Positions 52,754-58,700 of a stretch of DNA of 64,000 nucleotides are shown piece by piece (within the stretch, counting starts at the first letter, position 1; each line of letters starts with the position of its first letter). Under the pieces are notes generated by a model. It ran no database searches. It worked only from the letters and a program-made list of their open reading frames with translations, and was not told where the DNA came from. Origin of the DNA: Pardosa pseudoannulata (Eukaryota > Arthropoda > Arachnida > Araneae > Lycosidae). The DNA lies in contig CM063502.1 of assembly GCA_032207245.1 (NCBI GenBank), positions 47,701,404 to 47,765,403 on the forward strand, given 5' to 3'. A program made the translations under genes and the position numbers.

Positions 52754-55700
52754 GTGTTATAAATGCCATATGCATAACTTATAAAATTTCCACTCATCCA
52801 CAAATAAAGTATAAATTTTGTCTAATAATGTTAGAAATTGCATTAATTATTGGTATGAGGCACTAGTAAAGCATTTAAAAATTTGAACTCTATAATCATA
52901 ATAATCAAAATGCCAAACTTTCAAATTTCAAACTGAATTTAGGTGATGTACTGCATTATTGAAGATGATGTTAATTTACACTTTAATAGCTTATGCAGCA
53001 ACTAATCTAATTGATTAAAATTTGAATGAAAAACAGCAAACTTAATTTTTCTATCATAAATGAATTATATTATATTATTACATTCCTTGCATAAAATATA
53101 TTTATGACATGCAATTATTTTTTCAATATTTTAATCTTTTGCAAATTTATGAAAGGTATAACTTTGATATCCTATGGTCTATGTTTTTGGCAGGGTTATT
53201 GGTATTTATAGCGATGAATTTGGTTGGTTTGGTGAGAAAACCATAAAGTCTACCTGATTAAGGTGGCCAACATGGCAACTAATGACTGATAAATAGAGGC
53301 ATTTTATAATGAAAATATTAGCAAGTTAAAAAATAGCTGTATGATAATCAACTGATAATGTCAGAAAATAATTAAAATTCTGAAAAAGTATCAATAACCA
53401 GACTACAGCCCTTTTTAGTGCATTAAATCACACTGCTTCACCTTAATAGTTTTAATATTATTGGTTTTATTAGGAAAAACATTTTTAAGTAAAAAGAAAA
53501 ATTTAATTAATTATATTCTACATCAAGCTGCAAAAACACAGTTATGTTTCTAAAACTGCGGTGTTTTAATATTAAAAGTTTCAATATATTTCTTTATATT
53601 TGAAATATTAATACAGCATTTAAAACAGACACCTTTCAAATCAAATCTTTGTGCGATACACAATGAAATGTTACCTTATTATAGCTAATGTGAACTTCCA
53701 TTTACAGTAATTTGGGAGAAAGGCTATAAGAATGAGTTAAATATCTATTAATATATGTATATAAAATAACATATTTTTAAAAGCCGTTGTAATGGAAATT
53801 TTTTTTCCAACATACATGCATAAACAATGCTCAATGAAAAGATTATGACAGTTTAAAAATGCCAAAACTTGGGAATTAAATGTGATTTTATTTCATAGTT
53901 AAATACAAATATATTTTTCAATAAAATCACTCCAACAAATGAGAATTCACGGACGATGGTCATTAATATGGTGCTGCTTTATAGCATCAGAATCCACAGG
54001 TTCAAAAATCCTGCTGCTAACAAACTTATTTGTAGTCATGAAGTTCTGCTTGATTGAGAGCACCACAGTCTACTTTTATGCTAGAAGGGGGCTAATGAGA
54101 TCAGGGTTTACTACTTTAAGCCATTTTCGAATGGCTACAAAAATCCATAGCAGCAGTGGTATTAGAACCCATGAACTCCCGTACCAAAGAGCAGCATCTT
54201 ACCCATTCATCCATTGTTTCAACACCACAGTCACTCGGAATCAATTTTAAGCAGTACATCCGGTCCAACTAGCCCCAGTGAAAATTGACCTTAGAATTCA
54301 AAATCAAAACAGATCAATAAAAAATAAAAAACAAGACACTCAAGTTAATTTTTTTTGTCTTTCAGTCAAATTATTGCGTTAAAATAAATCTATGTATCTT
54401 ACTCTAGAATGAAGTAAGAGGGGAGGGTATGTACATCTGGTTGATACTTTGTTAGAAATTTAAAATGGCTATATATTTTTTTTAATATATATTTTTTTTT
54501 CAAAAAGAGCTGAAATGGAAATTTTGTATTTCATACATGCAAAATTGAATTATGATATCAGACAGTATTTTATAGTTAGGTGGGATAGGGTTGGCTGTTG
54601 ATTTCACCAAAATTTGGAATGACTACCTTTCCAAAATATCTGCATTCAAATCAATGTTAAAAGTTTTTGTTGTTAACACACGCTCAAAATAAGCTTAAAT
54701 GAATGCTGATGAGTAAATTTATTATTCTAAATGTTGGGCCAATTTAACATGTATGGAAACAGGATAAAAATTACTAGTTTCTGGTGTTGTCACATGAGTT
54801 TGTTTTATTACCAGCAGAAATCATGTACATTGGATAATCACGTTAATAAATTTATTTAGTAGTAAAATTATTTGAATGCAAACACATGCTCACATTGCCC
54901 CTACCAATCTAAATCGGTTCACTGCCCTTCAGCTTCGGGGTTCACTTAAGAATTGGGTACACGCTAATAGGTGCCAAATCTGGTAACCCAGACTGCTTTC
55001 TCCTCTACTCGCCGTGATATTTTTTCGCTTATGTACAATTTAGAGGCCGTTCTTTTTATGTAACCCTTTCGTTACGTTTCAATTTGCCTAATTTCTATTA
55101 GATCTTTGTTTAAATGCGCTTTATTTCTATTGGTTTAGCGGTTAACGGCACTTTTAACGCAATATTCAAACTGGTTATACTCGTTTTCTGCCATTTTCGC
55201 CTGAGGATATTGTTTGATGCACTTCTGTTTGGTTTTTGTGTGAATGAGGGGCTTATCAATAATAAATATGAATGTTTGGTGTGTAAGAATGATATGAATC
55301 TGATCTAACGTAAAGATTGATCCAGTGGAAGTGCATCCAACGCCTAAAAAGTAAGTGCTTATGTTTTTTTAATTTCAAGTGATATTTCATGTTACTTTAA
55401 TTGTAAACTCTTTCGTGTGGAGTGAAGGAAGGTTTTTATGTGTTTTTTGAATGGTTGTGGATTTAAGCAATATTTTTTTAGATGCAGTTAGTGTATATTT
55501 ATTTTATTTTTCATATGTATATAAAAAATATTACATTTTTAATAAATTTTTATACTATTTGTAATAACATTTACGGGGGGTCAAGGGGGGCAGAGCCCCC
55601 CTTGGTTAAAAAAGTTTTTGATAACTCATAAATTTATTTAAAAAATTAGAAAGTACTAACCTTTTAATGTTCTTTGAAAATTAAAATTAAATCTCTGCGG

Positions 55701-58700
55701 ATGTTTTATTTATTTTTTATTTCTGGTTTATCTTTTAAAATGAAATTTTTAATTATTTTGTGTGTTTAAAATAAGGAAATATTTTAAGATTATAAAAAAT
55801 AATAATAATAATAAATTAATTTATTACATTTTTAATAAATTTTTATATTAACATTTACGGGGGGTCAAGGGGGGCAGAGCCCCCCTTGGTTAAAAAACTT
55901 TTGATAAATTAAAAATTTATTTAAAAAATTAAAAAGTACTAACCTTTTAATATTGTTTGAAAATTAAAAAAATCTTTGCGTATGTTTTATTTTTTATTTC
56001 TAATTTATCTATTTTTAATTGTTTTGTGTGCTTAAAGTCAGGAAATATTTTAAGAATATTAAAAAACAAAAATAATCAATTTTTAATGATTTAAAATTAA
56101 CTACCAATTAATATTAAAAAAATAACATGAATAAACAAAATTTGTATTAATGTAAATATCATTTTACGCAATTTTCAACATTTTTGCCATTAATTGCAAA
56201 ATTAGTACATTATTTCACAATAAAATAAGTCAGTTAATTTAGTCGAGGCGAAAATCCGTTGCCGTTCAAAACGTCAGCCTTCCGGTAACTCCACTCGAAG
56301 GAGTTGGCGTGATTGGCGCCAAAAAAAAATCGCCAAAAATAGCAGGCTGTACCCAATTCTTAAGTAGTCCCCAGCTTCGTTCCACTGTCCCCGTTGAAAA
56401 CCAATGATCTAAAACATATTTTAAGTTAATTTTGTATTTCACATCAAGAACAACTGTCTATCATTTTCATGTTATAATTTTAAGTTGATACCTACTAAAA
56501 AATGGTCACTTAACATATCTAGTGGGAATAAATAAACAAGACGTGCTGTCTCTAAAATCAAACTCACTACCAATAAATAGAAGCCACAAGAATTACTATT
56601 CTTGGGCATAAGTGAAAATATGCCACAGCATAGGATATCAAAGCTGTTTCATGTGAAATAATATAATCTGCTGAAAAGTTTTGACAGAAAAGTCACCAAG
56701 AACTATTATAACAATCATTAAATAAATTCAGCCATGTCATGAATTCATAATGCATTAAGAGTTAGAACAGAACATACCAAAACAGCAAATTTGGCATTAA
56801 TTTTCTTGCGAGTATTTGAACTTTTTACACCTTGAAGTGCTTTGCTTTTGTTTTCAAGATATGCATCTTTTCCCTCATATGGCATTATTGCACCAGGAGA
56901 AGTCCAGCTACGCTGAACTTCTTTGCCAAAGTACTGAACATGATAAATAATAACATCACCAACTCGACCTGCCAATGAAAAGTAATATAAGTAATTGAAA
57001 GTTGATACTTATATATCCACAACACAAAATTACACTGGCATAAACTTAAAAGAAATGGGTACAGGAATATTTTTATGCTTAATATTGATATTTTTTCTAT
57101 TATGGTAATGGTAACAAACATGATCAATGTAATCTAGTTTTAAATGCTATCGTTTCAACTTTTAGGTCCCCATCCTATTAATACTTAATTTTACTTTGTT
57201 AACAAATGTAGACAGCACTTGAGAGGAGGGGGCTGGCTAACATTAATATGACTGTTCCACAACAACAAATAAACTTGAAACAACAATAATGAATGCTTTT
57301 AATTCTGCCTTGACTGCTAAATTTCGCTTGGTCATGCAGTAAAATAGGTCTGTTTGATATTATATTTAAATTTCTTAAAGAATTAAGTTTGAATGTTTCA
57401 CATTATAAATTTATTGTTTTCACATTATATAAAAAATTGTTAATGATGTTATATAAAAATATCTGCCCGCATGCAATAACAAAATTTCAGTGCTGGATAT
57501 CCATAACTGATAGGACAAGTAACTCAGATACTGGATAAAACCACTAATTCCTCCATATTGTCTGCAATTTGATGAAGGGCAGGATTTAATTCAATGTTAT
57601 TGGCTGACCAAATTTATATCTTGATTTACCACTAAACTCATAATAACATAAAATTGTAATCACAAGATATGGTAGCACAAACTTGGGTTTGTTTCAGATT
57701 GAATTCATATATTCTAATTTTTGGTACTTAGGTTTTGATCAGGAACTACTGCTTAAAGCCGATTCCAAACATCCATCCACAATGGAATTCAAATCCACAA
57801 ACTCCAGTACCGAATATCAGCACTGTAACTGTTCAGCCAATACTTGGGTTTTGACTGTGAGTCTGTCAATATAGAGAGATACTTAATTTTTTTTTTAACT
57901 TTTCTTTAAATTGATATAATTTAGAACATTATACTTATAACTTCTCTTATAGTACCTAATTTGGCATCAATTAAAACCTGTCAATCAGACTGTAAAATAA
58001 ATTGAAATAAACAATTAACGGAATTGCTTAAATTTATCAGTAAAACACACAATACTTTATATTCATAATATAAATATTACATACTTTTCTTTTTCTTGTA
58101 ATAACGGCCTTCAAAAGGATCGTATGAAACCATGCAAGGCCAAAATGGATTGCCACCAATTTTTGCCCATAGCAAATCTCCAACACCATATTTAGCTTCA
58201 TGCTCTTCTTTCTCCTAAGTAAAACATACAAACTTTAAAATAAATAATTGCAAAAAATAAAATTTGCACATATATTTAAGTTTATATTAAATTTTAAAGT
58301 TTCCAAATTTTACAAATAAAACAAAATATTTTGAAATGTCTTTAGAAAAAAATGAGATTATTGTTAGAAAAATTTAGTTTTCAGGTACTCTCACTATTCC
58401 CAATATCAGAACACATAAAATTCCTTACTTTATGTATACTTTATATTTTGGTATATTGCAACGTAAATTCAAAAATAGTAATAATCATAAATATAATGCT
58501 ACACTGCAGAAAAATTGACTTTAAATGAAACATTCTTAAAAATATAATGGCACATAGTTTTCATAAGAATAATTGTTAACAAATTTTTTCTAGATCTGGT
58601 AAAGTTGTAGGCTTCAAATTTTGAAACTTTCTTCTCCAATAAAAGCCGTAAGATTTCTATCTAAATAGGATTTGGACTTTTTCCCAGCTATGATAACGAA

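What the first reader, a model, noticed from the sequence alone, without database searches (positions are those of the whole stretch)
54930..56379. Merlin-like transposon with perfect 8-bp target duplication and duplicated GC hairpin
CAGCTTCG flanks both ends exactly, and 23-bp inverted ends match at 20 positions. A zinc-ribbon-like fragment (YECLVCKNDMNL...RKD) fits the N-terminus of Merlin/IS1016-type transposases, which make 8-9 bp duplications. The catalytic part is replaced by a 284-bp tandem duplication, each copy carrying an identical C6/G6 hairpin although the surrounding sequence has diverged. The conserved hairpin suggests it matters to the element, perhaps for transposition or transcription stop; that is inference.
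Basis: partly seen in the sequence, partly recalled or inferred. Interest (0 to 1): 0.75.

Follow-up and report, generated by a model that had tools for sequence, protein, structure and literature searches.

The report
Deleted Merlin transposon with hairpin tail
This is a non-autonomous Merlin "jumping gene" in an animal genome that kept its ends, lost most of its transposase gene, and copied itself many times, probably using the transposase of an intact relative found in the same genome.

Summary
An exact 8-bp duplication (CAGCTTCG) flanks 54938-56371, the ends match at 21 of 24 positions, and a tandem duplication carries two identical GC hairpins 284 bp apart. The host genome (2.4 Gb, arthropod-like) holds a family of copies: 40 of 965 candidates were scored, and the 24 intact copies examined are 96-99.8% like their consensus. 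Two loci with intact 316-aa DDE_Tnp_IS1595 transposases carry the same terminal sequence: L048 at both ends, L053 at the left. L053 shows how the family arose: an in-frame 762-nt deletion fused the zinc-ribbon N-terminus to the last transposase codons. The hairpin region therefore did not replace the catalytic part. It is the relative's 3' untranslated tail, separately duplicated. The hairpin is conserved between L053 and the family but not among family copies. Inverted loops suggest template switching. A well-documented new member of a known kind; hairpin function stays open.

The parts
54930..54937 (.). left copy of the 8-bp target-site duplication, CAGCTTCG
   Evidence: sequence
54938..56371 (+). 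the non-autonomous Merlin element, 1434 bp; strand is that of the transposase remnant
   Evidence: boundaries reproduced in genomic copies
54938..54961 (+). left terminal inverted repeat GGGTTCACTTAAGAATTGGGTACA
   Evidence: 21 of 24 match to the right end; inner 18-mer 216 times in the genome, reversed control 0
54962..55224 (+). left internal region; the family consensus here is 91-95% identical, block by block, to the region 5' of the ORF in L048 and L053; the consensus has two copies of a repeat (GCGCCAAATCTGGT) and the window copy has one
55225..55347 (+). transposase remnant: N-terminal zinc-ribbon segment (LFGFCVNEGLINNKYECLVCKNDMNLI*RKD*SSG) fused in frame at about 55329/55330 to the C-terminal codons (SASNA*); 762 nt deleted relative to L053
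   Evidence: profile hit; comparison with L053 and L071
55348..56347 (+). tail homologous to the 3' untranslated region of the autonomous relative L053
   Evidence: BLAST of the family consensus to L053: 422-898 at 86% and 937-1405 at 83%
55521..55812 (+). first copy of the tandem unit
55799..56080 (+). second copy of the tandem unit
55582..55604 (.). hairpin 1: 10 Watson-Crick pairs, AGA loop
55866..55888 (.). hairpin 2: identical to hairpin 1
56348..56371 (-). right terminal inverted repeat GGGACTACTTAAGAATTGGGTACA (read on the - strand)
56372..56379 (.). right copy of the 8-bp target-site duplication, CAGCTTCG
   Evidence: sequence

Best explanation
The element is one copy of a non-autonomous Merlin family. 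Shown: it has the ends (GGG, three variable bases, 18-bp inverted repeat), the 8-bp target duplication, the remnant of a Merlin transposase and a tail matching the 3' tail of an autonomous Merlin; relative to that relative 254 codons are missing in frame; the tail unit with the hairpin is present twice instead of once; and many near-identical copies exist. Inferred: the Merlin transposase of an autonomous element with the same ends (L048/L053 type) binds the ends in trans, cuts the element out and inserts it at staggered cuts that fill in to 8 (sometimes 9) bp. Inferred, with less confidence: in the parent element the hairpin lies in the 3' untranslated region, shortly after AATAAA motifs, and helps to end the transposase transcript; in the deleted copies it is a passenger.
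For: Merlin N-terminal profile: E about 1e-5 at the fragment, next best 1.2. L048 carries both ends and an intact 316-aa ORF with PF12762 (E 8.5e-28); L053 carries the left end, an intact ORF (E 5.3e-27) and the hairpin tail. Deletion of 762 nt; the junction PDG|SASNA* is seen in L071, and SDG|SASNA* in the consensus. Of 24 intact family copies, 6 have a perfect 8-bp duplication, 3 have 7 of 8, 1 a perfect 9-bp, 3 an exact word of 8 or more displaced by 1-4 bases (one of them poly-T), 11 none; adding 6 further elements gives 16 of 30 with a match against 2 of 870 mis-paired flanks. Copies are 96.0-99.8% like the consensus. 216 exact terminal 18-mers, control 0.
Against: 11 of 24 intact copies (14 of 30 elements) show no duplication by the rule, L048 among them, which allows displacement and one mismatch, 16 of 24 copies reach at least 7 of 8 against 7 of 552 control pairs. 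L048 and L053 are siblings, not the direct parent: the N-terminal remnant is 81% and the tail 83-86% identical to them. No locus seen has both ends, an intact ORF and the hairpin tail: L048 lacks the tail, L053 lacks the right end, and L074 has changed ends and a frame break. Direct searches with the fragment alone found nothing (Pfam; protein database). No activity was measured.
Confidence: 0.94

Rival explanations
1. A non-Merlin element with 8-9-bp duplications (hAT, P, Mutator-like) whose zinc-ribbon fragment is a chance match.
For: Duplication length alone does not separate these superfamilies; Pfam gives no hit on the fragment.
Against: Intact Merlin (PF12762) transposase ORFs lie in loci with the same ends; the fragment joins in frame to that ORF's last codons; the ends begin with GG, as reported for Merlin families in PMC8101967 (passages seen).
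Confidence: 0.01
2. Hairpin as a 3'-end element: in the autonomous Merlin it follows AATAAA motifs in the 3' untranslated region and acts as a G-rich or structured pause site that promotes cleavage, polyadenylation and termination of the transposase transcript.
For: L053 has one hairpin about 240 nt after the stop codon, with AATAAA motifs just upstream (sequence). Across L053 and the two consensus units, 38 nt are identical in a row (2 of 50000 shuffles); G/C columns are identical in 23 of 23 inside and 13 of 37 outside, A/T columns in 15 of 15 inside and 162 of 225 outside. G-rich pause sites downstream of poly(A) signals promote Pol II termination in human cells (PMC3145960, abstract seen).
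Against: AATAAA is common in such AT-rich DNA. L048 has an intact ORF without this tail. No GC-rich hairpin with a stem of 8 or more was found in 29 of the 30 Merlin ORF loci scanned, L053 being the exception. Among 24 family copies there is no extra conservation. No RNA data.
Confidence: 0.3
3. Hairpin conservation is mutational, not selective: the perfect inverted repeat is maintained by self-templated replication (template switching), and the two units look alike for this reason and by shared ancestry.
For: Loop-flipped hairpins with unchanged stems: TCT instead of AGA at C1:107329561 and C5:150359824, in different units of two arrays (first unit of L083, second of L084), and TCC, the reverse complement of GGA, at C7:118225169. 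Interstrand template switching inverts loops (PMC8794818, passages seen). Family copies show divergence of 0.016-0.017 in the hairpin stretches against 0.010-0.026 elsewhere.
Against: Stem mismatches persist in several elements (L067, L070, L072). Template switching within the stem does not explain conservation of the unpaired GGGGGT and GTTAAAAAA around it.
Confidence: 0.45
4. Hairpin as a cis-acting requirement for transposition (binding or synapsis site).
For: The 24 intact amplified copies carry the hairpin stretch twice, some with point changes, and it was conserved through subfamily divergence.
Against: It lies hundreds of bases inside the ends. L072 has an exact 8-bp duplication but no perfect stem; L067 (9-bp) and L070 (8-bp) also have imperfect stems, although the damage may postdate insertion. 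L048 and the 429-bp L069 lack it altogether, but they show no duplication.
Confidence: 0.08

Closest known systems
Merlin superfamily of eukaryotic DNA transposons (PMC8101967: abstract, section 10 part 1 and passages seen)
   Same: Ends begin with GG; 8-bp or 9-bp duplications; [quoted passage not shown] imperfect ends and internal tandem repeats are reported there for some families; the spider Araneus ventricosus is named as rich in Merlin (112 sequences).
   Different: The window copy is deleted and has no working transposase; it carries a duplicated hairpin unit. [quoted passage not shown] the N-terminal cysteine pattern here (CxxC in the first 140 residues of 109 of 122 proteins) also gives no Pfam hit in our two ORFs.
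L048 and L053, autonomous-type Merlin copies in the same genome
   Same: Same left end (both) and same right end (L048); left region 91-95% identical block by block; L053 shares the hairpin tail.
   Different: Intact 316-aa ORF; L053 has one hairpin unit, not two, and lacks the right end; L048 lacks the tail.
Merlin-like MITEs of the microsporidian Nosema bombycis (PMC4405373: passages seen)
   Same: Non-autonomous elements assigned to Merlin, 8-bp duplications, ends of 24-34 bp.
   Different: Different host; classified there from ends and duplications; here a coding remnant and a probable autonomous partner were found.
Merlin of the spider Argiope bruennichi (P0066)
   Same: N-terminus GLI..C..C...MNL..RKD as in the window fragment; 50% identical to the L048 protein over 303 residues.
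   Different: Different family; its DNA ends were not examined.

Membership tests
Merlin | transposase with the DDE_Tnp_IS1595 (PF12762) domain in the autonomous partner | tested here: met
   L048 E 8.5e-28, L053 E 5.3e-27; the window copy itself has lost this domain
Merlin | ends beginning with 5'-GG | tested here: met
   GGGTTC... and GGGACT...
Merlin | 8- or 9-bp target-site duplications | tested here: met
   window copy 8 bp exact; of 30 elements 8 perfect 8-bp, 2 perfect 9-bp, 3 with 7 of 8, 3 displaced, 14 none; control 2 of 870
Merlin | terminal inverted repeats of 24 bp or more (24-462 bp as passage) | tested here: met
   24 bp with 21 matches, at the lower limit
Merlin | transposase remnant in the element itself | tested here: met
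   profile E about 1e-5; in-frame junction to C-terminal codons; Pfam on the fragment alone gave nothing
Merlin | mobilisation by Merlin transposase | not testable with these tools
   needs a transposition or binding assay
hAT / P | autonomous partner of that superfamily with these ends | tested here: inconclusive
   the two ORF-bearing loci found with these ends encode PF12762 and no hAT or P domain; no genome-wide hAT or P search was run

The most novel reading that the evidence does not exclude
A lineage of Merlin transposons acquired a 38-nt 3'-untranslated hairpin module (GGGGGTCAAGGGGGGCAGAGCCCCCCTTGGTTAAAAAA) that ends or protects the transposase transcript, and that extrudes in living cells often enough for its loop to be flipped repeatedly; its duplication in the deleted derivatives could have made them better competitors.
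Probability: 0.2. Interest if true: 0.45.

Novelty: new member of a known kind. Interest (0 to 1): 0.3.

Why it matters
It gives a clear worked case of how a non-autonomous Merlin family arises (an in-frame deletion in an autonomous element, duplication of the 3' tail, amplification), with a candidate partner in the same genome. That makes a trans-mobilisation test of a Merlin element direct. The loop-flipped hairpins look like a natural record of template switching at a perfect palindrome.

Tried and rejected
Fragment alone against Pfam and against the protein database: no hits; the Merlin assignment therefore rests on a profile built from full Merlin proteins and on the autonomous-type loci. 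Search of the TIR and the hairpin in viral contigs and of the element in phage records: nothing. The hairpin pattern in bacterial genomes gave 6 stretches in proteobacterial contigs with look-alike hairpins; I noticed no shared surrounding sequence and take this as convergence. Rfam: no family in the window at gathering scores. I considered the GTAAGT after the remnant as a splice donor and rejected it when L053 showed that it follows the stop codon. Solved structures: none at E 0.001 for a generic Merlin seed. Papers holding the literal end or hairpin strings: 0. Hairpin loci L073-L084 were picked by the exact hairpin pattern, so they were not used to judge its conservation. In one search, 6 of the 30 fetched copies (L013, L014, L017, L021, L025, L028) were dropped because an end was missing or changed. 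L068 was left out because its flanks equal those of L067. The six-frame pieces cover window 1-63000, not the last 1000 bases. One search stopped with an error after L064, so L065 and L066 were not scanned there. A protein search for more autonomous copies with the L048 ORF did not complete, nor was a search with the L070 element.
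Full report
Observation. The element at 54938-56371 is flanked by CAGCTTCG on both sides. Its ends match at 21 of 24 positions: GGG, three mismatches, 18 perfect. A scan of the window found no other inverted pair with at least 20 of 24 matches and exact 8-bp flanks (100-6000 bp apart) apart from (AT)n artefacts; eight Markov-model sequences reached at most 17 of 24. The tandem units and the two identical hairpins are as described. The hairpin has 10 Watson-Crick pairs and an AGA loop, about -21 kcal/mol on either strand.

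Host. The window is part of a 2.415-Gb genome in 1949 contigs. It holds a Gypsy-like and a BEL/Pao LTR retrotransposon. Among the 122 Merlin proteins collected, the best-scoring match to the L048 transposase that bears an organism name is from the spider Argiope bruennichi (P0066, fifth of those listed). The host looks like an arthropod, perhaps an arachnid; this is inference.

Superfamily. A profile of 119 natural N-termini from that list was run against 246 six-frame pieces covering window 1-63000. The full-length profile agreed more weakly (E 0.0006 and 0.0013; next 0.31) and places the match at 55225-55329. Against this, Pfam and the protein database gave nothing for the fragment alone. 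In 109 of 122 Merlin proteins a CxxC lies in the first 140 residues, so a zinc-ribbon-like N-terminus is usual, although PMC8101967 states that Merlin lacks the domain Zn_Tnp_IS1595 (passage).

Family. A genome search scored 40 of 965 candidates and gave 47 match rows; 30 loci were fetched, the window copy among them. Twenty-four have both ends and are 96.0-99.8% identical to their consensus; these 24 carry the hairpin stretch twice, some with point changes. Target duplications in the 24: 6 perfect 8-bp, 3 with 7 of 8, 1 perfect 9-bp, 3 displaced exact words of 8 or 9 (one poly-T), 11 none. With L048, L067, L069, L070, L071 and L072 added, 16 of 30 match against 2 of 870 mis-paired flanks. If up to four bases of displacement on either side and one mismatch are allowed, 16 of 24 copies match, against 7 of 552 control pairs. 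The terminal 18-mer ACTTAAGAATTGGGTACA occurs 216 times in the genome and its reversed control 0 times.

Autonomous partner. A search of the genome with P0066 scored 127 of 1713 candidates. Of the 30 loci fetched from it, L048 has the terminal 18-mer at both ends, and L053 has it at the left end together with the exact hairpin; the other 28 have neither. Both ORFs are 316 residues without stops and carry PF12762. L048 is 1568 bp between its ends and shows no target duplication. L074, found through its hairpin, is an older relative with changed ends and a break in the reading frame.

Origin of the deletion. L053 reads ...CGTAAAGATCGACCCGATGGA|TATC... and, 762 nt later, AGTGCATCCAACGACTAA. The family consensus joins GATGGA directly to AGTGCATCC, so 254 codons were lost in frame. 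L071, an 1186-bp relative with one hairpin unit, has RKDRPDG|SASNA* and so one stop fewer. The region after the stop codon, hairpin included, aligns with the 3' tail of L053 (83-86%), which has one unit. The left region (91-95%, block by block) and the last 69 bp (96% to L048) are closer to the autonomous loci than the remnant is (81%), as expected if the ends are held by the need to be recognised (inference).

Hairpin. Across L053 and the two consensus units, 38 columns are identical in a row (2 of 50000 shuffles). G/C columns are identical in 23 of 23 inside and 13 of 37 outside, A/T columns in 15 of 15 and 162 of 225. Among the 24 copies, divergence in the hairpin stretches (0.016-0.017) lies within the range of other regions (0.010-0.026); for G/C positions it is 0.0177 inside and 0.0224 outside, for A/T 0.0154 and 0.0122. 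This fits constraint, or a mutational cause, before amplification and free decay after it. The hairpin pattern occurs 136 times in the genome, control 0. Of the 100 places listed, 93 have AGA as loop, 2 TCT, 1 TCC, 1 GGA, 1 AAA and 2 AGG (counted by eye). Twelve of the 100 were fetched: six with no copy known nearby, two near Merlin ORF matches, four for unusual loops. All 12 align to this Merlin tail. The TCT loops lie in different units of two arrays (L083 first unit, L084 second), with the 23-nt hairpin matching in reverse. Separate inversions by template switching explain this best (PMC8794818, passages). A role in 3'-end formation is my preferred function in the parent if there is one. 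It rests on position, nearby AATAAA motifs and the G-rich pause sites of human genes (PMC3145960, abstract), and is not shown here.

Verdict. Ordinary in kind, unusually well documented: a new non-autonomous Merlin family with a probable autonomous partner. Open: which locus mobilised it, and what the hairpin does.

Noticed in passing
window 7223-11758: Gypsy-like LTR retrotransposon with 232-bp LTRs, 98.7% identical to each other; RNase H and integrase domains recognised.
   Followed up: partly
window 12808-18734: BEL/Pao LTR retrotransposon with 326-bp LTRs that are 100% identical, so probably a recent insertion; its coding region is spread over overlapping or adjoining open frames.
   Followed up: partly
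L083, L084, L074 (G000:C1:107329561, C5:150359824, C7:118225169): Hairpin loops in reverse-complement orientation (TCT, TCT, TCC) with the stem unchanged: apparent inversion of a 23-nt palindrome.
   Followed up: partly
L056, L058, L060, L064: Candidate ends of other Merlin families in the same genome, with exact 8-bp flanking repeats and the same plan: GG, a few mismatched bases at positions 3-6, then 15-16 of 20 matches overall (28 of 30 loci scanned before the script failed).
   Followed up: no
L008, L009, L010, L012, L029: Some copies with intact ends seem to have 1-4 extra bases between the end and the target duplication (for example CAAG at the right end of L010), as if a little flanking DNA had been carried along.
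   Followed up: partly
G000:C3:29335516-29338230; L028; L036: Copies lying inside or beside other copies of the same family, including a head-to-head pair in L028.
   Followed up: no
L067, L068, L069, L070, L071, L072: Further deletion derivatives with the same ends: 741 (twice), 429, 802, 1186 and 1138 bp; L067/L068 have a 9-bp and L070 and L072 an 8-bp duplication.
   Followed up: partly
L001-L006: Look-alike hairpin GGGGTCAAGGGGGGCnnnGCCCCCCTTGG in six stretches of proteobacterial contigs, in some beside a second GC hairpin.
   Followed up: no
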